Source: a virus
Virus record (IMG/VR): IMGVR_UViG_3300047557_000649
Coordinates: 1 to 48,508 of that record
DNA length: 48,508 bases
Strand: one strand, 5' to 3'
The translations under genes and the position numbers were made by a program. The notes under the pieces were generated by a model. It was not told where the DNA came from, did no database searches, and saw only the letters and a program-made list of their open reading frames with translations. Below are positions 2,030 through 16,098 of the stretch, one piece after another; position 1 is the stretch's first letter, and each line of letters starts with the position of its first letter.

Positions 2030-3415
2030 TCACATGAGGTTTGCAACCTTGACTCTTCTGTAGTAAACGTTTGAGTTTCTCTCCAGAACACCAGGATTGG
2101 TGAGGGTAGCACCTTTTGCGAATGGGTTGGCAACAATTCCGTAACGGGTCTTGAAGCCAATTTTTGGCTGGAAGGTGTTCTCGCCAACGGCACGTACCAT
2201 CTGTAGAGGTACATATGGGCAATAGAACAGACCAGCGTCATAAGGTGAGGAACCCTTATAACCAACAACGTAGTACTGGTTTGCTGAGTTGTTAGCGGCG
2301 TATGGGTCAATGTATACGCGGAACTTACCAGCAAGAACACCAGCGAAGGTGTTACCAGTGTCATCAACGTTGAGGTTAGCGTTGAGGGCAGGGGTGTAAT
2401 CCAGAACACCAGCCATCGTCAGAGCGGAGGCAACGTCTGCGGAGCAGAGGATCATGTTGCCCTTCCCTCTACGAGTTCTCTGAGCGATTTGGTTAGCATC
2501 GCGCTCGATCTGGAAGATCAGACCCTTGAACTTCTCAACTGACCAACGACCGTTGGAGTCAACGTCAAGGTCAAAAGTACCAGCAGTTGCGGTATTAACG
2601 GTAGCACCGGTTTCAGCAACGTTGTAGATGGTACGGATGACTTCACGGTTGATTTCAGCAAGAATTTCAGTGCTGAGGATGTTAGCAAGCTCAGCTTCTG
2701 CATTCAGACCGTGAATTGCCTTGAGGTCCTGAGCGAGTTCTAATGAGTACTCAGCTTTCAGAGCTCTTGACTTAGCGGTAACGGTGACTTTCTCGATTGA
2801 GAATGCCATCTCGTTGAAAGCAGGACCACCACCTAGGTTCTCTGCCTCATCGGTACGCATACCCTGACCTACGTTGTAGGTAGTAGCAGTTGCGCTAGCG
2901 ATTGGGTTGAGGAGACCAGGGTTGGTTCCTTGTTGTGCGGTAGTACCAAGACCAACGCTACCATCGGTCCAACCATCGGTTTCAGCGAAGGTTGCGCCCT
3001 GACCAGAATATGCGGAATCTACTTCGTTGTAGAAAGCTTCTGAACCAGTTTGATTGGTGTAGCGTGAACGCATTGCGAAGATGAGTCCAGTAGGACCATT
3101 CATTGGTTGAACGCCAGCCAGGTCATAAGCAACCAGGTTAGGCATTGCACGTCTGATCAGGGAGATCAGAACGGGGTCAAAACCAGCAACAGGTGAAGAA
3201 GCACCAGCTGAGAAACCAGCGGCTGAACCAGTGTTGGTATTGACGGTTGGGGTTTCGTAAAGGAACTCACGCTCTTCGCGGAGTGCTCTTTCTTGGTTCT
3301 CCAGGAGAACGGCAGTTACCATTCTACGATGTGAATCTTTGATTGGATCAAGACCTTCGTAGTCTAGGAGGGGTGCCCACTTCTCCTGCAGATGTTCTTG
3401 GTTGAACATTTGCAT
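2030..3415 (-). CDS. gp23: Major capsid protein gp23
   Basis: 461 residues; the major head protein of T4-like phages, which forms the hexamers of the icosahedral shell (HK97 fold). Recognisable stretches are NLVAYDLAGVQPMNGPTGL, then FAMRSRY and EMAFSIEKVTVTAKSRALKA, the classic gp23 core used for marine phage typing. T4 gp23 has 521 residues; cyanophage forms are shorter, as here. A gp21-type processing site, (L/I)xE, is present as LYE at residues 52-54, which would remove an acidic N-terminal delta peptide. The ATG at 3415 is preceded by a good ribosome site, AGAGGT. The codons are richer in G and C than those of the neighbours, fitting a highly expressed gene. It is flanked by gp22 upstream and a strong terminator downstream. 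Confidence 0.97.
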   Translation of the reverse strand: MQMFNQEHLQEKWAPLLDYEGLDPIKDSHRRMVTAVLLENQERALREEREFLYETPTVNTNTGSAAGFSAGASSPVAGFDPVLISLIRRAMPNLVAYDLAGVQPMNGPTGLIFAMRSRYTNQTGSEAFYNEVDSAYSGQGATFAETDGWTDGSVGLGTTAQQGTNPGLLNPIASATATTYNVGQGMRTDEAENLGGGPAFNEMAFSIEKVTVTAKSRALKAEYSLELAQDLKAIHGLNAEAELANILSTEILAEINREVIRTIYNVAETGATVNTATAGTFDLDVDSNGRWSVEKFKGLIFQIERDANQIAQRTRRGKGNMILCSADVASALTMAGVLDYTPALNANLNVDDTGNTFAGVLAGKFRVYIDPYAANNSANQYYVVGYKGSSPYDAGLFYCPYVPLQMVRAVGENTFQPKIGFKTRYGIVANPFAKGATLTNPGVLERNSNVYYRRVKVANLM

Positions 3416-3463: not shown

Positions 3464-4561
3464 TCACTTTTTAGAAACTCTATTCAGAGTCTGAAGATAT
3501 GACTCCATTAAACCAGAAACTGGTTGATAATTGGAGGACGAGTTTTCTTCAGAGAGATTCTCTGAATTGTCTCTTTGAGTACCAGCGTTTGTTGGGAAAT
3601 ATGATTCCCTTAACGTTACTAGCTTCTCACGATAGTCTGCTTCACTTTCAAACTCAACATTTTCAGCAAGAGAAGCGAGTTTGTCCTTCTGAGAAAGTGC
3701 TAGACCCTCAGCGACTTCTGCAAAGATTACATCGGCAACTGACTCGGCTAATCTTCTATTCAGAGCAACATTTCTTTCGATTTGCTCGTTGAGTTTTGCT
3801 TCCATTTCATCAAGTTTATCTACCATGCTCTCGATGACATCATATTTATCTTCAGGGATTGTTACATAATGATCTTCAAAAAGACTCTTCATTCCAGCAA
3901 GGAATGATTCGGTCATTTCGGTCTTAAGACCGTGCTCAACTGCGAGTGCGTTTTCTTGGAACCACTCGTCAGCGACATACTCAAGATATGCGTCAACTCT
4001 ATCGGTTAACTCTTCTTTGATTGTTTGTACTTGCTCAACCAAAGACTCTTCATATTGACCTTGAAGTTGCTCTTTGATTTCAGCAACTCTGGTTTTGATA
4101 GCAGCTTCAAAAATGGTACGTGCTTTTTCTTGGAACTCTTCGGAAAGTTCTTCGCCTTCTAGAAGGGCATTTACATCCTCTTCTACGCTGAACTCTTCTT
4201 CAACTTCCTCTTCACCTTCTTCTTCTGCTTCGGTTTCTAGAGCCTCTTCAGCCTCTAGATCCTCTTCAGTGGCTTCCTCTTCCTCATCCTCTGCTTCCTC
4301 TGACATTTTCTTCATAGGATCAGCGGACTTGGCGCCTTTGTTAACAACATTCTTTACTTGAGAAAGTGTTGCGCCAGGCTCTTTGAGTTTAGCCGAATCA
4401 TCATCTGCTCTATAATTTTCAGGAGTAGGACCGCCAAGATCTTCCCAAGTGCCAGTTTGACCATCAGGAATGCCTGTGGTCAGCTTTGGCATTGGTTCAG
4501 CTGGCTTTGCTCCTTTGGTTACTACGTTTTCCATTTCTTGTAAATTGCTACCAACGGACAT
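3464..4561 (-). CDS. gp22: Prohead scaffold (core) protein gp22
   Basis: 365 residues. gp22 is the main component of the internal scaffold on which gp23 assembles; it is degraded by gp21 during head maturation. The protein is very acidic in residues ~85-150 (long Glu runs) and then largely helical and likely coiled coil, with no Cys, as scaffolds are. The C-terminal part, with NRRLAESVADVIFAEVAEGL and ASLAENVEF, is typical of cyanophage gp22. Residues ~10-30 and ~68-88 repeat one motif (NVVTKGAKPAEPM and NVVNKGAKSADPM). T4 gp22 has 269 residues; the extra length is the N-terminal repeat and acidic region. It has its own late promoter and sits between protease and capsid genes. Confidence 0.93.
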   Translation of the reverse strand: MSVGSNLQEMENVVTKGAKPAEPMPKLTTGIPDGQTGTWEDLGGPTPENYRADDDSAKLKEPGATLSQVKNVVNKGAKSADPMKKMSEEAEDEEEEATEEDLEAEEALETEAEEEGEEEVEEEFSVEEDVNALLEGEELSEEFQEKARTIFEAAIKTRVAEIKEQLQGQYEESLVEQVQTIKEELTDRVDAYLEYVADEWFQENALAVEHGLKTEMTESFLAGMKSLFEDHYVTIPEDKYDVIESMVDKLDEMEAKLNEQIERNVALNRRLAESVADVIFAEVAEGLALSQKDKLASLAENVEFESEADYREKLVTLRESYFPTNAGTQRDNSENLSEENSSSNYQPVSGLMESYLQTLNRVSKK

Positions 4562-4601: not shown

Positions 4602-5252
4602 TTATAGATTTGACAAAAATTCATTGAAGAGATTTAATTTGTGCTCTTCAAGTCTTTTTTGATCAACGAGAGTGTTAATTCTCTTTTGAGTTTGTTCGGC
4701 AAGTTTTTCACGAAGAATACCACCTTCCCAAACCCACTCTTTACCTTCCATAATTCCCTGAACAAAAGCGTCAGGAGCAGAAGGGTCGGCAACGATATCA
4801 GCAGCAGTTGCTAGCATAAAATCTTCACCAACAATTTTGTGACCTTCATTGGTCATCTTGAGTGAACCAACACCACGAGAAGAAACGCCAAGAGTAACGC
4901 CCTCACTGATTAGTGATTTGGCGATTTTACCCATAGGAGTTTCAAGAAGTTGTGCCTTACCTTTAAAATTGTTTCCCTCTTGAGTAAGTGAAACAATCTT
5001 ATGAGAAACGCGGTCAAGATTTACGGTTGGTCCATCTGGATGACCGAGTTCACCTAAAGCACGACCCTTTTGAATGAAACTCTCATCATATCTTTTTACT
5101 TCACGTGAAAGAGTTTCCATAGGATACATTCTGCCATTTCTATTGCAGATGTTTCCTTGGAGGAAAACACCTTCAATATACATCTTTTTGGCAGATCCTT
5201 TGCCTTCTACGATAAATTCTACTTTTTGAATTTCTTCTGTGATGAGTTTCAT
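4602..5252 (-). CDS. gp21: Prohead maturation protease gp21
   Basis: 216 residues (T4 gp21 has 212). This serine protease of the herpesvirus-assemblin-like fold processes gp22, gp23 and internal proteins inside the prohead. Visible family landmarks are NRNGRMYP (39-44), GELGHPDGP with the catalytic-type His71, GVSSRGVGS with the nucleophile candidate Ser124 or Ser125, and DIVADPSAPDAFV (~152-164). The C-terminal tail is charged and helical, probably removed by self-cleavage. Its ATG overlaps the TAA of the upstream 179-residue gene by one base (TAATG), so the two are probably coupled. Confidence 0.95.
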   Translation of the reverse strand: MKLITEEIQKVEFIVEGKGSAKKMYIEGVFLQGNICNRNGRMYPMETLSREVKRYDESFIQKGRALGELGHPDGPTVNLDRVSHKIVSLTQEGNNFKGKAQLLETPMGKIAKSLISEGVTLGVSSRGVGSLKMTNEGHKIVGEDFMLATAADIVADPSAPDAFVQGIMEGKEWVWEGGILREKLAEQTQKRINTLVDQKRLEEHKLNLFNEFLSNL

Positions 5253-5791
5253 TAGAGGGAATTTGTAATTTGAACTTCGGTAATATGAGTAACACCACTT
5301 GAATTTGTGGCGACTTTAACTGCTTTTCTTATTTCAGCACTACTTGTTGCTGTGATAACACCAGTAATTGCTGATGTGTTCCAACTTAAAACAATTCTAT
5401 CTGACTGATATCCATTTCTTGGATCAGTATTTAGAATGCTTGAAACTTGGGCAAATGTTGTATTGATTCCTGCTGGTTGAATACCAGTCAGAGCAACAAA
5501 GTCACCAACACTAACGCAAGAACCAGTTCCACCAGGTAGACTAATTGTAGTAGTAGTTCCTGTGGATACCCCAACCACTGGTTGTGATCTTACTGGTTCT
5601 TTTATAACAGCAACTTCACCCGCTTTTAACCACAAACTTGTAGAAGTACTAATAGTTGGTGTGTAACCAATCTCAATATAAGCATCTGCCTCTGGAGTAA
5701 TTCTTAAATATCCAGATTGAAGAGATATTGGATCACTAGTGGAACCTCCACTAACTTTAGCAATCTTTTGTACTATTTTAAAGGCGGACAT
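5252..5791 (-). CDS. Unknown head-module protein, beta-rich
   Basis: 179 residues, no recognised domain. It is rich in Ser, Thr, Gly and Val, has a predicted beta-strand pattern and no Lys/Arg-rich or membrane segment. The middle has a Ser/Thr/Gly stretch (VVGVSTGTTTTISL). The N-terminus, MSAFKIVQKIAKVSGG, is the only cationic part. It sits between core protein gp67 and protease gp21, where T4 has gene 68, but it does not resemble the basic, helical gp68. The position suggests a head accessory or decoration protein; this is inference. It is coupled to gp21 by a one-base overlap. Confidence 0.8.
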   Translation of the reverse strand: MSAFKIVQKIAKVSGGSTSDPISLQSGYLRITPEADAYIEIGYTPTISTSTSLWLKAGEVAVIKEPVRSQPVVGVSTGTTTTISLPGGTGSCVSVGDFVALTGIQPAGINTTFAQVSSILNTDPRNGYQSDRIVLSWNTSAITGVITATSSAEIRKAVKVATNSSGVTHITEVQITNSL

Positions 5792-6023: not shown

Positions 6024-6031
6024 TATTTATA
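6024..6031 (-). promoter_or_regulatory. Late promoter core TATAAATA before gp67
   Basis: TATAAATA on the minus strand, 25-32 bases before the gp67 ATG. The TAA stop codon of gp20 (6029-6027) is inside the element. Confidence 0.75.
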
Positions 6032-7700
6032 TCTCAGCACTCTTAACGTCTTTTTGGAGTTGAGCATCTGTGACTGCCCCTTGTTTATCAAGGTCTGGTT
6101 CTTGTGGAACTTCACCCATCGGACCCATTTCACCACCTTGAGGTAATGGTTCTCCAGTAATTGGATCAACGGCATTTGGATCTGGAATGATTCCCTCTTC
6201 AATTTCTTTTTCAATTTGAGCATCAATGTCAATAATTTCTTGATCAGTTTGGCGAAGAACTTTTTTGCGAACGTATTCAACGGAGAAATATTTGCCAATA
6301 TAAGGTTCCATTGTCGCCACTAATCCAAGTCTCTCATTTAACATTTCAGATTCTTTAAGTTCAGCAAACTGATTGTCATATAAGAAATCATACTGAATAT
6401 GATCATTAATTTTATCCCAATCTTCTGGAGAAACAATGTTTTTGAGAATCAATTGCGTCTTCAACATATCGCTGAACATATTGGCAAAACGCTTTCTTAA
6501 ACGTCCAACAAATTTAGCAAATTTAAGTTCATCACGGAGAATTTCTGAAGATCTTCCTAGATTGAATCCACCATCAGAGGCGATTCTTGATTCTGGAACT
6601 CCAAGTGCTCTGTAAAGTTTCTTTTGGAAATACTCAACATCAGTAAGTTCTCCAAGATTCTGTCCACCAGGAAGTGTGGTGATTTCAGTTCCTCTACCAC
6701 CTTCACGACGGGGTAACCAGAAATCTTCCATCATACTCATAAACTTACGATCATCACGAACTTCTCCAGTGTTCGCATCATAAACAAGTTTATTTCTATA
6801 GCGAGACATAACCTCTTTGAGGTATTGTTCTGCCTTTACTTTTGGAAGATTACCAACGTCAATATAGAAAATACGACGTTCTGGAGCACGAGACAATCTG
6901 TAAATAACAAGAGAGTCCTCAATCATTCTTAATTGATTGAGTGCCTTAATTGCTTTGTGAAGATATGAAAGACAGGTTCCTTTATTTCTATCAAAAAGAC
7001 CAGAAGTTACATAAGTAACAGAGTCTTTTGCGATTTTGATTGATCCTTTTGTATTTCCTGCTGAAGAAAAAGTTCCAGTAGGATAATTTGGTTTTGGAGT
7101 ATAGACGTAATATTCTTCAATCTCTGGATAAATCTCTTTTCTGATATCTTCAGGTCTTTGTATTGATACCAAATTGTCTTTGTTAGACTTTTTCTCTTGT
7201 CTAACAAATTTAATCTTCATCGGATCAATGTATCTGATCTCTTGAATACCATCTTGAGGTCTTTTAACGTCAATAACTTTTAGATAATAAAGTCTTCCAT
7301 CAACATACCAATTTCTAAAAATTTCGTGGGACTTTTTATCAAAGTCCATTACTTCTTTGATATATCTAAATTCTTCTCTGATTTTTTGCTTTAACTTATC
7401 GCTGGCATTTACGTTTGTTAATTCAATTTCAACTGGTGAGTCATATAGATCACTAACAATTGCTTCATTGACAACATCTTCAATGGCAGCATCACACTCT
7501 GGGTGAAGTGCCATTTCGCGGTATCTTCTAATTAAATCAAATTCTGTTCTATAGACTCCCTCAATATCTACATATTGACCATAAAAACCGGACTGAATAT
7601 AATAATCAACCCCGTCCTCGTTTGTTTGGGGGACGGGGGATACTACTGAATCCGGTTTTTTAGACTCATCATCAATAGAAAATCCAAAAAGTTTTGCCAT
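6027..7700 (-). CDS. gp20: Portal vertex protein gp20
   Basis: 557 residues (T4 gp20 has 524). The portal forms a dodecameric ring at one head vertex, initiates prohead assembly, and is the channel for DNA packaging by gp17. Landmarks are YREMALHPECDAAIEDVVNE (~60-80), NWYVDGRLYYLKVID, GLFDRNKGTCLSYLHKAIK, and YIDVGNLPKVKAEQYLKEVM, all typical of T4-like gp20 and much used as cyanophage markers. The last ~50 residues are acidic, Gly/Pro-rich and likely disordered. The ATG at 7700 lies 24 bases after a late promoter core. Order gp19-gp20-gp67 is as in T4. Confidence 0.97.
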   Translation of the reverse strand: MAKLFGFSIDDESKKPDSVVSPVPQTNEDGVDYYIQSGFYGQYVDIEGVYRTEFDLIRRYREMALHPECDAAIEDVVNEAIVSDLYDSPVEIELTNVNASDKLKQKIREEFRYIKEVMDFDKKSHEIFRNWYVDGRLYYLKVIDVKRPQDGIQEIRYIDPMKIKFVRQEKKSNKDNLVSIQRPEDIRKEIYPEIEEYYVYTPKPNYPTGTFSSAGNTKGSIKIAKDSVTYVTSGLFDRNKGTCLSYLHKAIKALNQLRMIEDSLVIYRLSRAPERRIFYIDVGNLPKVKAEQYLKEVMSRYRNKLVYDANTGEVRDDRKFMSMMEDFWLPRREGGRGTEITTLPGGQNLGELTDVEYFQKKLYRALGVPESRIASDGGFNLGRSSEILRDELKFAKFVGRLRKRFANMFSDMLKTQLILKNIVSPEDWDKINDHIQYDFLYDNQFAELKESEMLNERLGLVATMEPYIGKYFSVEYVRKKVLRQTDQEIIDIDAQIEKEIEEGIIPDPNAVDPITGEPLPQGGEMGPMGEVPQEPDLDKQGAVTDAQLQKDVKSAEI

Positions 7701-10566: not shown

Positions 10567-10821
10567 CTACCAATCAGGATATTCCCATCTGATATCCGAT
10601 TGAGTGTCTTTTTTGAACTTACGATTATTTAAAATACGATTTTTGGTGCACTCTTTACATTCATATGAGTATGCCGATGAGAAGACTTTTCTACCTTTAC
10701 GTGTCAGGTAAAAGTCATCCATTAAATTTTTTACTTTACCACAAACTCTACATTTCCTATCAAAAAATAATATGTGCTCTAGATCTATCTGATCATCTAT
10801 GTCCATCAAAGATAGTCCCAC
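10567..10821 (-). CDS. Small zinc-ribbon protein of unknown function
   Basis: 84 residues with two CxxC pairs, CRVC (24-27) and CKEC (55-58), about 27 residues apart, enough for one structural zinc site. Between them is a basic DFYLTRKGRK segment, and TKNRILNNRKFKK follows the second pair, so nucleic-acid binding is likely. The pattern recalls the zinc-binding N-terminal part of phage recombination endonuclease VII-like or HNH proteins, but the catalytic His/Asn motif is absent. The ATG at 10821 overlaps the end of gp17 by 16 bases; a second ATG at residue 6 would nearly remove the overlap. It sits between the large terminase and the sheath genes. Confidence 0.8.
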   Translation of the reverse strand: MGLSLMDIDDQIDLEHILFFDRKCRVCGKVKNLMDDFYLTRKGRKVFSSAYSYECKECTKNRILNNRKFKKDTQSDIRWEYPDW

Positions 10822-12452
10822 ATATAAGATTTATCACCATATTCATCTAAATGCCATCTGTCACCATCAACGTCAACAAAACTTTCACCATCTTCTAGAC
10901 CAGTTTGTATAAAACCAAATGGAGACATATCCTGCTCAATTTGATTTTTTTGTTCTTCATAGATTCTCTTACGGACATCATTATCCGTCATTTCTTTAAA
11001 GTAATCTTGAGCAACTAACCAAGAGAAAATAACCAGACACATTGCTAGATCATCATTACAACCTTCTTCTGCTTCAAATGAATTGTGTCTCTGTGCGAAT
11101 GTTGTAAGTTCAGATATAATGTCATAATCAACTGTGAGTAACTTATCGTCTTCCAATAATGTCTTTAAGTTAGAGCATCCAAGTTTTTTAACAGCGGCAG
11201 TCATTCTGACTCCCAGTTGAGATTTTTTGCCGCTAAATCCTGAACCAACAATTTGACCAGCACGACCACGCATCGCACACATTAAAACATTATCATATTC
11301 AAGATCAAAATGTAAAATATTTGCTACCTGATCTCCAATGTCATTTACTTCAATTAGCAACCAAGCACCATTGTATGCTTTTGCTACTTCGTGTATAACA
11401 CTAGGAAACAACATTGGTTTAATTTCATTGTTTCTATACTTCGCTACGACTTTGTACGGAAACTCTGTAATATCAAAAACAATAAACGCCGAGTAGTCAT
11501 TTCCTAGACCACGAGCAACGTCTACAGTAATCAAATAATTATTTTCTTCTTTCGGTTCACTGTAAACATCTAGTCCGGCATTTCGTTTGATTGGATCTTC
11601 ATATACCAGATTTCTTAACTTGGAAGGATTAATCAGTGTATTGACCGATCCTAAAAATTCACATTCAAACTCAACCTTGAATTGCTGTTCCGAAGTGTTA
11701 GCAATTGTTTGTTCTTTCCAAACCTGATCTCTACCAGGCACTTCTGACCAATGAACATCTGTAGGCACATATTCATTTTTTCCTCTCTCCGCATCGTGCC
11801 ACATACGGTAGAAGTGATTCATACCACGTGGCGTAGATACGATGATTACCTTCGTGCTCTGTCCAGAAGAAATAGTAGGATAAACAGAGGCAAAGAAGTC
11901 ATCAGCAATGTGATTCGGGATGAAAGCGAACTCGTCAAGAAAGATGACATTATAGGATCCGCCTCGGACAGCAGATGAAGAAGTAGAGTTAGATGAAATC
12001 TTGGAGCCATTTTCTAATTCTAAACTACCTTTGTTCCAGGATATAATACCCTGTTGCATCCACTTTGGTAGATTCTCATAAGCAAGTTGTAGTCTTCCAA
12101 GCAGATCTCTAGCAGTGGATGCTTTGTTTGCCAGAATAGCTATATTGACATTATCGTTGAATACGGCATAATGTAACAAATATGAAACACAAGTAGTAGA
12201 TTTACCCGTCTGGCGGGGCATCTTACAAATATTAAATCTATTCTCGTGGAAATTCCTTACAAGTTTCTCTTGAAATGGATACATCTCAAAAGGAACAAGA
12301 CCATGATCCAGAGAAACAATTTTAATATAATTCTTTGCGAAATAAACTGGATCTTCTTTACACTTTAAGAACTCAATGATTTGTTCTTCTGTAAATTCAA
12401 TTGCGGTATTTGCTTTTTTTAGATTGGGATTGCCAAGATAAACTTCACTCAT
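10806..12452 (-). CDS. gp17: Terminase large subunit gp17
   Basis: 548 residues (T4 gp17 has 610). It is the ATPase motor and headful nuclease that pumps DNA through the gp20 portal. Visible motifs are Walker A PRQTGKST (79-86), Walker B VIFLDEF (169-175), a coupling motif VSTPRG (205-210), and an RNase H-like nuclease with Asp311 in ITVDVARG, Glu368 in IEVND, and the Asp pair in GCNDDLA (~467-468). All catalytic positions look intact. Unlike T4, where gene 16 overlaps 17, gp16 is 3.2 kb upstream here, separated by three genes. It follows the 433-residue gene by six bases. Confidence 0.97.
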   Translation of the reverse strand: MSEVYLGNPNLKKANTAIEFTEEQIIEFLKCKEDPVYFAKNYIKIVSLDHGLVPFEMYPFQEKLVRNFHENRFNICKMPRQTGKSTTCVSYLLHYAVFNDNVNIAILANKASTARDLLGRLQLAYENLPKWMQQGIISWNKGSLELENGSKISSNSTSSSAVRGGSYNVIFLDEFAFIPNHIADDFFASVYPTISSGQSTKVIIVSTPRGMNHFYRMWHDAERGKNEYVPTDVHWSEVPGRDQVWKEQTIANTSEQQFKVEFECEFLGSVNTLINPSKLRNLVYEDPIKRNAGLDVYSEPKEENNYLITVDVARGLGNDYSAFIVFDITEFPYKVVAKYRNNEIKPMLFPSVIHEVAKAYNGAWLLIEVNDIGDQVANILHFDLEYDNVLMCAMRGRAGQIVGSGFSGKKSQLGVRMTAAVKKLGCSNLKTLLEDDKLLTVDYDIISELTTFAQRHNSFEAEEGCNDDLAMCLVIFSWLVAQDYFKEMTDNDVRKRIYEEQKNQIEQDMSPFGFIQTGLEDGESFVDVDGDRWHLDEYGDKSYMWDYL

Positions 12453-12458
12453 AATAAA

Positions 12459-13760
12459 TCACCTCTGTTCAATCCAGTTCAATACCGCAAGTGCTTTTTT
12501 GTTGGTGTTTGGAGATGCACAAACAAGTGTATAAGTATCACTGATTGTTCCAATACCAGACCTTCCTAGTTGTAAGTCTGCAAGTCTATCAATTTCAGTT
12601 AAAGAAGAACTACCTTCCATAGTAAATCCAGAAAGAAGATCTCTACCATTAGAAAATGAAGTTGCAGAAATATCATACTGAGCAAATGAATCTAGATTTG
12701 CGTGATTTGTCCAGTTTGCACCAGTTAATGTTGCATTCTCTAAAAGTTTCCAATACACATTCGTGTTATCATTCGTAACTGCTTGTAAAGACCTCAAAAG
12801 CAATACTGCTTGTAATGCTGTTGGTTTAAGGCGGATGCTCACGACGGGATAAAATGTATTTGCAAGTGTCATCGTAGTTCCCGCGATAGTATTGGACTGA
12901 CTTACAAGAGCTCCAAGTTTTTCTGGTTCTCCTTCTTGGATAAGTGAATTAGAACCCTGATAAAGATAATGAGTTCCTGCAACGCCAACTATGTTTTCAA
13001 TCTCAAGACGAATTGGAAGAAATGGTGTAGAACACCAAACATAATTATTTGTATTTGAATTATAAAAAGAGTGACTTTTATAAGTCCCACCATTCATTAA
13101 CCAAGCAAAATCTACGGTTCCTGCGCCATACCATTCGTAATTAATGGAAATCATCTGTTGTTTTGTTGGATCTGCAGTTACACCAGATGGTCCATTACCA
13201 TCAAACTTATCACCATTCCAATTATCTCTACTTATTGCTATTTCTGTAGTAATACCAGATGTAGTGGTGCGAATAACATAAGAATATGTTCCTCCGTTGT
13301 CCTCAAAGTAAGCACCATTATATTCATCAAACAATCCAAATCTTCTGCGAATACCCACTTGAGGATTGTCAAGACGAATTGCGAATGCAAGTGTTGTGCT
13401 TCTACCAGGAATGTATCTCATTACATTCTTGGTTTGTCTGATGACTTTACTTCCACCAGTGGAACCCACTTGCATGATTACATTACTGGAATATTGATTC
13501 CAAGTTGCAGTTCCAACTCCAACGATTCTCTCATCCCAAACATCAGTCTCTTTACCGTACTGGAATGTGTTAAAGAAAACTGTTTGATATGGAGAAACTT
13601 TTAATCTATTACTATCTGTTTCATTTCCAAAAGTTGCTGTTACTGGAAATGGATTAGTAACTGTAACAACTTCGCCATTTTTATTGGCGATCATATTGAC
13701 TTCAAAGAGGGTTCTTTCCTGATTTAGAAAGTCCTGCTCATTTTTATTAAATTGTGCCAT
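12459..13760 (-). CDS. Virion structural protein, beta-sandwich-like
   Basis: 433 residues without a named domain. The start, MAQFNKNEQDFLNQERTLFE, is helical, followed by NPFPVTATFG and a long beta-rich body with many Asn, Gly, Thr and aromatic residues. Segments such as GRSTTLAFAIRLDNPQVGIR and RRFGLFDEYNGAYFED resemble lectin-like jelly-roll sheets. The C-terminus is LADLQLGRSGIGTISDTYTL followed by a conserved-looking NWIEQR end. Comparable proteins in cyanomyoviruses are listed as virion structural proteins; that is recalled, not searched. It lies between gp16 and gp17 in a three-gene cassette. A carbohydrate-binding or head/neck fibre role is possible but unproven. Confidence 0.8.
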   Translation of the reverse strand: MAQFNKNEQDFLNQERTLFEVNMIANKNGEVVTVTNPFPVTATFGNETDSNRLKVSPYQTVFFNTFQYGKETDVWDERIVGVGTATWNQYSSNVIMQVGSTGGSKVIRQTKNVMRYIPGRSTTLAFAIRLDNPQVGIRRRFGLFDEYNGAYFEDNGGTYSYVIRTTTSGITTEIAISRDNWNGDKFDGNGPSGVTADPTKQQMISINYEWYGAGTVDFAWLMNGGTYKSHSFYNSNTNNYVWCSTPFLPIRLEIENIVGVAGTHYLYQGSNSLIQEGEPEKLGALVSQSNTIAGTTMTLANTFYPVVSIRLKPTALQAVLLLRSLQAVTNDNTNVYWKLLENATLTGANWTNHANLDSFAQYDISATSFSNGRDLLSGFTMEGSSSLTEIDRLADLQLGRSGIGTISDTYTLVCASPNTNKKALAVLNWIEQR

Positions 13761-13763
13761 AAA

Positions 13764-14072
13764 TCACTCACTCCACGATAATCTTTCTGGTTGATATCTT
13801 TGTGCGTTTTTAATTCTTGAAGTATTTACCTGACCAGGATAAATGTTATGAACAATCGCTCCAGGATATTCTCCTTGAATTTGTTCTGCTAGTTCATTTT
13901 TAGAAAGCATCTTGCCTTCTACTTCTAAACGATACATCTTTCCTTCCCAAACTACGTCAGCAAAAAAAGATTCGCTTGCTTGTTCTGGTTGGGAGGAACC
14001 TACGTTTAGAGTTCCGTTAAAGTCACCATTGATGGTGATGCTTTCTGAAATAAATTGTTGAAAGGATTTCAT
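13764..14072 (-). CDS. Candidate internal head protein with capsid-targeting peptide
   Basis: 102 residues. The N-terminus, MKSFQQFISES, closely resembles the capsid-targeting sequence of T4 internal proteins (MKTYQEFIAEA in IPI), including an IxE site after which gp21 cuts. If processed, cleavage would fall after Glu10 and release a mature protein starting SITINGDFNG. The rest has a short beta segment (TINGDFNGTLNVG), a FFADVVWEGKMYRLEVEGKM segment, and a basic C-terminus, RIKNAQRYQPERLSW. No other domain is recognised. It is two bases from the next gene upstream and sits between the two terminase subunits. Its packaging into the head is inferred from the motif only. Confidence 0.8.
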   Translation of the reverse strand: MKSFQQFISESITINGDFNGTLNVGSSQPEQASESFFADVVWEGKMYRLEVEGKMLSKNELAEQIQGEYPGAIVHNIYPGQVNTSRIKNAQRYQPERLSWSE

Positions 14073-14073
14073 T

Positions 14074-15666
14074 TTAGTTACAGTTCCAACGACGTAGGGC
14101 TTTGTTGATTCTTGAGTCTGGATCTCTTGCTGTTCTTGCTGAAGTAAGTTTAGACTTCATTCCCTTCATACGACGGCAGAAGTTAGCGCGACGATCTGCT
14201 CTTTTTCCTTTTGGATTCTTTTCTGTTACCGCAGTCTGAAGTTTTGAACCTGGATTTTCACGACGATAAGCATCTACTGCTTTCTGACTTAATCCATCAG
14301 TTTTGTCTTGACGATTGACTTTTTGCCAATCTTCAGTCAGTTCTTCTCTCCAATTTGAATGTTGTTCTTTTACGCAATTTGGAACTAATCTTTTACCTTT
14401 CTTTTTCATTCCAACTTGTTTGTAACCAACCCAACACGCTTCTTCAACATCGTGCTCACCACTTTCTAGATAATCTGCTGCGGTATCAATGTAATCTGCT
14501 GCTTTTGTGATTTTGGACTGAACCCACGCTTCAATATTACCTTCACCTTTCATTTTCTTCTTTAATCTCTTTGCCGCAGCAATGATTGTGGAAAGTTCAG
14601 AACGAGCCATTGAATACTCGTGATCCTTTTCTTCATTTGCTGGGTGAACAGTAGCAATATTATATTTCATTTGATTTGTTGAAAGCATTACTGGTTGTGA
14701 ATACATTGACCAGTATGCTGGACCCATTTTACATTCTTGCTGCATCTCATTTTTCTTACAAGCAGGACAATACCTGATCATTTCAACTGCTTCAGATTTT
14801 GTTCCCCAATTAGCAGCACCAACTTTGCGGCACTTTACAAGTGCTCCAGAAGCATAGGCACTTGGCCAAACACTATATCTTGATTTTACTTTATTGTAAC
14901 AGGCATCTTTTTTTCCACTGCCTTTACCTGGTTTGTCTTTGACTTCTTGTAAATCCATTTCTTCAGTTCTTACATTTGTTGGTTTGGCACCACCAGTTTT
15001 TTCTGGTTGATTTGGGTCTTGTCTATTTTTTCTTCTTCTTGCTCTTTCTTCTTCTTCATCAGATAAATTTGCTGCCATTTTAGAACTTCCACATTTTGGT
15101 GTAGAAGTTTGCCCTGGTTGACGAGCGCAAGGTTTACCTGCCCATTTACCACCTAATTGAACCCATCCTGCTTTTCCATCCGATGATTTGGATTTTCCAA
15201 ACCAATCACGAAGTCCTTCATCTCCAGATTTAGTTTCTTCATATGCCATTCCAACTCTGGTGTGCTTTAATTCACCTTTTTGTTTGGCAATTAATTTTTT
15301 TGAAGCAACACGTGCTCCTTCTGGGGCACTCTGAACATTTTCATCAGGAATTTTTTTCTTCGGGTTGTCATAAACATCTACATCACCATCAGCATCTCTA
15401 TCAACATACTGTTTTACGGAATGATGAACTAACTGTTTAAGATCAAGATTCGGATCAAGTTGATGTTGAGACTTTGATAAATGCTTTGTTTTATGTGTAA
15501 ACTTTGTAAAAGTCAGTTGATCTTTTGCTTCAGAAAATGGAGACTTTGATTCGGTCTCTTGTCCTGCTGCTCTTTTTTTACGAGCAGCACAATGAGCCTT
15601 TTGTGAAAATCCTTGTGGACTATCACAATCTATTGATCTCTTGTATTCTTTAGACCAACCCATCAA
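14074..15666 (-). CDS. Mosaic basic protein with repeated small phage modules, unknown function
   Basis: 530 residues, very rich in Lys/Arg, with several Cys. It seems to be a string of short modules: a Cys-containing DCDSPQGFSQKAHCAARKKR (13-32); an Asp-rich DRDADGDVDVYD (89-100) like a calcium loop; DWFGKSKSSDGKAGWVQL (154-171) with a KPCARQPGQ...PKCGSSK region; DACYNKVKSRYSVWPSAYAS (254-273), which I recall as DUF5872-like; a possible metal site RYCPACKKNEMQQEC (298-312); a helical SELSTIIAAAKRLKKKMKGE (356-375); CWVGYKQVGMKKKGKRLVPN (411-430); and a basic C-terminal ADRRANFCRRMKGMKSK (DUF6321-like by memory). Each resembles pieces seen in other cyanophage proteins. Function is unknown; DNA binding inside the head is plausible from charge and location. 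Confidence 0.82.
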   Translation of the reverse strand: MMGWSKEYKRSIDCDSPQGFSQKAHCAARKKRAAGQETESKSPFSEAKDQLTFTKFTHKTKHLSKSQHQLDPNLDLKQLVHHSVKQYVDRDADGDVDVYDNPKKKIPDENVQSAPEGARVASKKLIAKQKGELKHTRVGMAYEETKSGDEGLRDWFGKSKSSDGKAGWVQLGGKWAGKPCARQPGQTSTPKCGSSKMAANLSDEEEERARRRKNRQDPNQPEKTGGAKPTNVRTEEMDLQEVKDKPGKGSGKKDACYNKVKSRYSVWPSAYASGALVKCRKVGAANWGTKSEAVEMIRYCPACKKNEMQQECKMGPAYWSMYSQPVMLSTNQMKYNIATVHPANEEKDHEYSMARSELSTIIAAAKRLKKKMKGEGNIEAWVQSKITKAADYIDTAADYLESGEHDVEEACWVGYKQVGMKKKGKRLVPNCVKEQHSNWREELTEDWQKVNRQDKTDGLSQKAVDAYRRENPGSKLQTAVTEKNPKGKRADRRANFCRRMKGMKSKLTSARTARDPDSRINKALRRWNCN

Positions 15667-15675
15667 AAAACTCTA

Positions 15676-16098
15676 TTACTCTTTATTATTTAGAAAACCT
15701 TGTTTGAGTAGTTTTGATAACTCGGCAGTTGATCCAACAAACAAAGCATTGTTGGTAACATTATTTGTAGTTTTTACAGTATCTTCTTCTACTTCTTTTA
15801 ATTTTTTCTGTAAGTCTATAAGTTTATCTGTAACATCTCCAACAGACTTAATTAACTGTCCAGCAACTTCATATGCTCTTGGGCTGCCTCCCTCTCCGGC
15901 AAGTTCCATAATTCCATTGATTGCCTCTTGCCCCTTTTCAATTAAAGAATACAAATTAGCACGAGTATACTCATAGTCTTTTTTAATGTCATTATTAGAT
16001 TCTTTAACACTTAAAGATAAATCGGATTCAGGTTCAACCGCAACAATGTTACTCTCAACATTGAGTGCTTGGTCAATCTTTTCAAACTTATTTGTCAT
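15676..16098 (-). CDS. gp16: Terminase small subunit gp16
   Basis: 140 residues (T4 gp16 has 164). gp16 oligomers recognise or regulate DNA for packaging and stimulate the gp17 ATPase. The centre, KKDYEYTRANLYSLIEKGQE followed by GIMELAGEGGSPRAYEVAGQ and a DLQKKLKEVEED coiled coil, is the typical cyanophage gp16 pattern. The acidic N-terminus is likely flexible. It follows gp15 by 15 bases and keeps T4 order with gp13-15, but gp17 is displaced by the inserted cassette. Confidence 0.9.
   Translation of the reverse strand: MTNKFEKIDQALNVESNIVAVEPESDLSLSVKESNNDIKKDYEYTRANLYSLIEKGQEAINGIMELAGEGGSPRAYEVAGQLIKSVGDVTDKLIDLQKKLKEVEEDTVKTTNNVTNNALFVGSTAELSKLLKQGFLNNKE

What the first reader, a model, noticed from the sequence alone, without database searches (positions are those of the whole stretch)
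13764..14072. Capsid-targeting peptide in a cyanophage protein within the terminase cassette
MKSFQQFISES is very close to the T4 internal-protein targeting sequence MKTYQEFIAEA and has the IxE gp21 cleavage site. It predicts a protein packaged in the head and injected with DNA, such as an anti-host-defence effector, as T4 IPI is.
Basis: partly seen in the sequence, partly recalled or inferred. Interest (0 to 1): 0.7.

Follow-up and report, generated by a model that had tools for sequence, protein, structure and literature searches.

The report
T4-style head-packaging tag in cyanophage
A small protein next to the DNA-packaging genes of an ocean cyanobacterial virus starts with the same short address label that phage T4 uses to load proteins into its head; we find this label on dozens of unrelated proteins in related viruses, including enzymes already seen inside virus particles, although this particular protein has not itself been detected in particles.

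Summary
The ORF is real (13764-14072, minus, 102 aa, phrog_1742). Its first ten residues, MKSFQQFISE, match the T4 capsid-targeting sequence (CTS) at all four mutationally mapped positions (F4 and F7 targeting; I8 and E10 processing). Expected by chance: about 3e-4 per window. One correction: MKTYQEFIAEA belongs to T4 IPII/IPIII; IPI starts MKTFKEFTSTTTP. The tag is modular: a degenerate tag pattern hits at least 120 viral loci with at least 41 unrelated bodies, including S-AdoMet lyases, an ADP-ribosyltransferase and nucleotidyltransferases; a codon-permuted control hits 3. In cyanophages with published virion proteomes, tagged enzymes (SAM lyase, kinase, NMNAT/cytidylyltransferase) are virion proteins. 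The window encodes its own gp21 protease, scaffold and capsid protein. So the CTS reading is well supported. The injected anti-defence effector reading is not shown for this protein. Its homologues are absent from the reported proteomes of S-SCSM1 and S-SZBM1. The body is conserved, acidic, unlike any known anti-defence family, and almost always paired with the virion-protein gene phrog_1645, either between terS and terL or between portal and gp21. A conserved head-core role is a serious rival. Best reading: a new member of a known kind, a T4-type CTS cargo.

The parts
13764..14072 (-). phrog_1742 protein, 102 aa; predicted mature form 92 aa, 10.4 kDa, pI 4.9
14043..14072 (-). codons 1-10, MKSFQQFISE: T4-type capsid-targeting propeptide; predicted gp21 cut after Glu10, before Ser11
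   Evidence: motif at CTS residues 4, 7, 8, 10; modular on unrelated bodies; modelled as a short helix, residues 4-9, at low confidence
13836..13970 (-). residues 35-79: small strand-strand-helix-strand core of the body
   Evidence: AlphaFold2 model, mean pLDDT about 90 or more over residues 41-80 and 78 over residues 31-40; paralogous domain in DUF6321 proteins
13884..13892 (-). residues 61-63, L-x-E: conserved possible second gp21 site (L61 invariant, E63 nearly so)
   Evidence: function inferred only
13773..13802 (-). residues 91-100, conserved C-terminal RYxPxxLxW motif
   Evidence: alignment A2
12459..13760 (-). phrog_1645 virion structural protein, the usual downstream partner; all-beta lectin-like sandwich model
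   Evidence: orthologue S-SZBM1_190 detected in virions
14074..15663 (-). DUF6321 protein, pI 9.6, net charge +35; S-SCSM1 orthologue SSCSM1_29 is a virion protein and carries a paralogue of the phrog_1742 core
4602..5252 (-). gp21-type prohead protease, the predicted processing enzyme
   Evidence: phrog_207, E 1.8e-82
3464..4561 (-). gp22-type prohead scaffold, the core a CTS would bind
   Evidence: phrog_237, E 2.6e-116
2030..3415 (-). gp23-type major capsid protein
   Evidence: phrog_138, E 3.4e-172; [LI]xE sites at residues 11, 39, 47 and 54
6027..7700 (-). gp20-type portal
   Evidence: phrog_213, E 3e-225
10806..12452 (-). terminase large subunit
15676..16098 (-). terminase small subunit

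Best explanation
The first ten residues are a T4-type capsid-targeting propeptide. During head assembly they bind the gp22-type core, so the protein is enclosed in the prohead; the gp21-type protease then cuts after Glu10 and frees a 92-residue acidic protein starting at Ser11. Shown here: the motif, its modular reuse on unrelated bodies, its association with virion enzymes in related phages, and the presence of gp20-gp23 homologues in the same window. Inferred: the binding, the cut, and the fate of the mature protein. I think it most likely (about 0.55) that it stays in the head at low copy and leaves with the DNA, acting in a conserved early step or together with the basic DUF6321 virion protein and phrog_1645. 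A specific anti-defence role for this body is unlikely (about 0.15).
For: CTS mutagenesis in T4 maps targeting to residues 4 and 7 and processing to 8 and 10 (PMC9026906); all four match. Virion link: S-SCSM1 NMNAT MKSFLQFLKEA; S-CREM2 SAM lyase MKDFDSFLEE, kinase VKRFDAFLTE and cytidylyltransferase MKNFSSFLTE are MS-detected. Strict-motif CDSs in three proteome phages: 4 of 7 virion, exact p 0.026; without phrog_1742 itself 4 of 5, p 0.0067. The NMNAT family keeps the strict tag in 41 of 47 loci. T4-type portal in 11 of 24 and gp21 in 8 of 24 tag-bearing records, mostly fragments; the one 168-kb record has both. phrog_1742 sits next to virion genes in two head-gene contexts.
Against: Homologues SSCSM1_30 and SSZBM1_191, and the tagged SSZBM1_192, are not in the reported virion proteomes although their neighbours are. 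SSCSM1_30 gives only two well-sized tryptic peptides, but SSZBM1_191 gives five. The body is acidic (pI 4.9), while T4 IPs are described as basic. No proteome gives the mature N-terminus. The proteome test is small, and CsCl preparations can carry contaminants. S-CBWM1 NMNAT, cited as a virion protein, has no tag, so virion enzymes do not always need one.
Confidence: 0.75

Rival explanations
1. Prohead-core protein lost on maturation. The CTS brings it into the core, but gp21 then cuts it (after Glu10 and perhaps Glu63) and the pieces leave, as with T4 gp67 and gp68. It helps build the head and is not injected.
For: Absent from two mature-virion proteomes. At least 12 loci place phrog_1742 + phrog_1645 between the portal and gp21, the place of genes 67 and 68 in T4. 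L61 invariant and E63 nearly invariant make a conserved second [LI]xE, absent at that place in the paralogous domains. The body is conserved, unlike T4 IPs.
Against: E63 lies in a confidently modelled helix and may be structural. Only two [LI]xE sites exist, against twelve or more in the window's scaffold. Most loci have the gene in the terminase cassette, away from the core genes.
Confidence: 0.3
2. Injected anti-defence effector, as T4 IPI is against GmrSD.
For: The same tag is on S-AdoMet lyases, an anti-restriction type of enzyme, one of them in S-CREM2 virions; T4 IPI and IPIII act this way.
Against: No Pfam or PDB sequence match for the body; conserved body across many Synechococcus phages; not detected in virions.
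Confidence: 0.15
3. Injected modulator of host RNA polymerase or a DNA-mimic inhibitor with a T7 Gp2 / RNAP-epsilon / p56-like fold.
For: Best PDB fold matches include T7 Gp2 on RNAP (prob 0.99, TM 0.65 on the target), YkzG and p56; mature protein acidic; T4 Alt is a packaged RNAP modifier.
Against: No PDB match is significant (best E 0.12); no sequence similarity to Gp2; small beta-beta-alpha-beta folds are common.
Confidence: 0.07
4. The N-terminus is a chance resemblance, or an amphipathic helix used for something else such as membrane attachment.
For: A 10-residue motif with aromatic and hydrophobic residues could have other uses; no direct cleavage data.
Against: Permuted control 3 against at least 120 hits; motif residues match T4 mutational data; virion association; E10 invariant in a family diverged to 44% identity (many rows were found through the tag, but a search with the whole protein agrees).
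Confidence: 0.08

Closest known systems
T4 internal proteins IPI, IPII, IPIII and their capsid-targeting sequences
   Same: Ten-residue N-terminal peptide with aromatic 4, F7, I8, E10; [LI]xE gp21 site; small protein; gp20-gp23 head module in the same phage
   Different: Body conserved, acidic and almost always paired with a virion-protein gene (phrog_1645 or a phrog_8198-type gene), against variable basic IPs; not yet seen in virions
T4 Alt and polyvalent injected proteins (PMC5512222)
   Same: Head-packaged host-modifying enzymes; a tagged ART-PolyVal protein exists among the tagged bodies
   Different: phrog_1742 has no recognisable enzyme domain
T4 prohead core proteins gp67 and gp68
   Same: Small core-associated proteins; same gene position (between portal and gp21) in at least 12 loci
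   Different: T4 gp67 and gp68 lack this N-terminal motif and are cut to peptides; phrog_1742 has only two candidate sites
DUF6321 / gp114-like cyanophage virion proteins (SSCSM1_29)
   Same: Carry a paralogue of the phrog_1742 core domain; adjacent gene; some DUF6321 proteins bear the tag
   Different: Long, basic, multidomain

Membership tests
T4-type capsid-targeting sequence | N-terminal, at the start Met, with aromatic residue 4 and F7 (targeting) | tested here: met
   F4, F7
T4-type capsid-targeting sequence | [ILM]8-x-E10 processing site | tested here: met
   I8-S9-E10; hydrophobic 8 and E10 kept across the family
T4-type capsid-targeting sequence | Portable: same peptide on unrelated bodies | tested here: met
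   At least 41 body clusters; control pattern 3 hits
T4-type capsid-targeting sequence | Phage encodes gp21-type protease and scaffold | tested here: met
   phrog_207 and phrog_237 in the window
T4-type capsid-targeting sequence | Tagged proteins present in virions | tested here: inconclusive
   True of several tagged enzymes; homologues of this protein not reported
T4-type capsid-targeting sequence | Peptide removed by the protease, new N-terminus at residue 11 | not testable with these tools
   Needs N-terminal MS
T4 internal protein | Small basic internal head protein, variable between phages | tested here: not met
   pI 4.9, conserved body
T4 internal protein | Injected with the DNA | not testable with these tools
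   No infection data
T7 Gp2 family | Sequence similarity to Gp2 | tested here: not met
   hhalign probability 0.14%
T7 Gp2 family | Gp2-like fold | tested here: inconclusive
   prob 0.99 but E 0.12

The most novel reading that the evidence does not exclude
phrog_1742 is the conserved cargo of a cyanophage-wide, T4-type head-delivery system that also carries SAM lyases, kinases, NMNAT-like enzymes and Cas9-annotated proteins, and its Gp2-like body retunes host RNA polymerase as the DNA enters.
Probability: 0.07. Interest if true: 0.85.

Novelty: new member of a known kind. Interest (0 to 1): 0.6.

Why it matters
Cyanophage virions repeatedly contain enzymes (NMNAT/cytidylyltransferase, kinases, SAM lyase, a Cas9-annotated protein), and the authors could not tell packaged cargo from contamination. 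A T4-type N-terminal tag on these proteins gives a simple rule for which cyanophage proteins enter the head, testable by N-terminal proteomics, and lets head cargo be predicted from sequence in marine T4-like phages. No paper in the searched library was found to report a CTS in cyanophages.

Tried and rejected
Pfam search for the body: nothing. PDB sequence search: only weak repeat-driven matches to designed kelch proteins, no single stretch significant. PDB fold search: nothing significant; Gp2/YkzG/p56 near the top only suggestive, and no sequence support for Gp2. phrog_1645 model gives a generic lectin-like beta sandwich; the individual PDB names are not informative. Literature search for the peptide strings: no paper; DUF6321: no paper. 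S-SM1 and S-SM2 (GU071094, GU071095) show no strict-motif ORF in the 50 kb around the terminase genes, so the S-SM1 proteome cannot test it there. S-CBWM1, a non-T4 phage, has no strict tag in its first 50 kb and its NMNAT is untagged: kept as a negative control. The DUF6321 neighbour in the window has no tag itself. Supplementary proteome tables could not be read, so the S-CREM1 and S-SM1 protein lists were not used. The large first cluster is single-linkage chaining, so 41 is a lower bound.

Full report
What is there. The ORF at 13764-14072 (-) encodes 102 aa starting MKSFQQFISES. It belongs to phrog_1742, function unknown, found in 139 phage records, all cyanophages. The window is a 48.5-kb IMG/VR record of a T4-like cyanophage and carries its own portal, gp21-type protease, scaffold and major capsid protein.

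Is the peptide a CTS? Mutagenesis reviewed in PMC9026906 places targeting at residues 4 and 7 and processing at 8 and 10. The window peptide has F4, F7, I8 and E10. A motif built on those positions has an expected count of 3e-4 in the window's 34 CDSs; in 48 kb of T4 it finds only IPII and IPIII, and in the window only this ORF.

Is it modular? Bodies behind the tag fall into at least 41 unrelated clusters. Pfam names some: S-AdoMet lyase, ART-PolyVal, CTP_transf_like, a double-psi beta barrel, a methyltransferase and DUF6321. Some loci carry several different tagged genes (L167 four, L166 and L182 two each). Of 24 tag-bearing records, 11 hold a T4-type portal and 8 a gp21 protease; most are short fragments and the only one of 168 kb has both.

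Does the tag go with virions? The GenBank notes of S-SCSM1 and S-CREM2 and the tables in PMC10665884 and PMC9146016 list MS-detected proteins. Strict-motif CDSs: S-CREM2 SAM lyase, kinase and cytidylyltransferase, all in virions; S-SCSM1 NMNAT in virions, SSCSM1_30 (phrog_1742) not; S-SZBM1_191 (phrog_1742) and _192 not. Stratified exact p is 0.026, or 0.0067 without phrog_1742. Looser variants, chosen after seeing the data, also favour the link: S-CREM2 gp13 MKDLHSFLTEQ and gp136 MQTFSMFFSED, and S-SZBM1_140 MRFRQFIIEA, all detected (p 6e-4, post hoc). The S-CRM01 kinase, a virion protein according to PMC10665884, starts MISFDQFLSE, and its cytidylyltransferase-like neighbour starts MKLFNQFFKEA. 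The NMNAT family keeps the strict tag in 41 of 47 loci. PMC10665884 left open whether these enzymes are packaged or contaminants.

What about this protein? Its neighbours' orthologues are virion proteins: the DUF6321 protein (SSCSM1_29, 35% identity) and phrog_1645 (S-SZBM1_190). Gene order is terS-DUF6321-phrog_1742-phrog_1645-terL in most loci, but portal-phrog_1742-phrog_1645-gp21 in at least 12, so the pair moves as a unit between two head-gene settings. The core domain has a paralogue inside DUF6321 proteins. The model is a strand-strand-helix-strand core with a low-confidence N-terminal helix. The mature form is acidic (pI 4.9), the DUF6321 neighbour strongly basic. The best PDB fold matches (T7 Gp2, YkzG, p56) are not significant, and Gp2 has no sequence similarity.

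Weighing. That residues 1-10 are a CTS: about 0.75-0.8. That the mature protein is kept and ejected: about 0.55. That it is a prohead-core protein lost on maturation: about 0.3, because it is missing from two proteomes, has a conserved second LxE, and can sit where T4 keeps genes 67 and 68. Anti-defence: about 0.15. The tests on proteomes are small, the tag-pattern set is selected for the tag so its invariant columns are not independent evidence, and no mature N-terminus has been measured.

Noticed in passing
L209:3837-13331 (S-CREM2) and L275:2249-6827 (S-CRM01): A block of genes whose products begin with tag-like peptides: SAM lyase, a Cas9-annotated protein (tag-like RFASFMAEA after a short extension), kinase, small proteins; these products are MS-detected in S-CREM2 virions.
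   Followed up: partly
L187, L124, L106, L161 and about a dozen similar tagged loci: CTS-like tag directly in front of an S-AdoMet lyase domain, a recurring architecture.
   Followed up: partly
L167:6502-9422: Four different tagged genes in one cluster, like a cassette of swappable head cargo.
   Followed up: no
L182:6037-7309: Two adjacent tagged genes, one with an ADP-ribosyltransferase-like motif (LYHGTSS); ART-PolyVal was found among the tagged bodies.
   Followed up: no
L153, L160, L165, L169, L192 and others: phrog_1742 + phrog_1645 occur as a pair between portal and gp21 instead of in the terminase cassette.
   Followed up: yes
window 5252-5791 (-): 179-aa ORF between portal and gp21 with no PHROG match, in the place of T4 genes 67 and 68.
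   Followed up: no
L136, L083, L189 and S-SM2 L222:21377-21805: Tag followed by APTNSV-like sequence that resembles the capsid protein just after its own LAE site.
   Followed up: no
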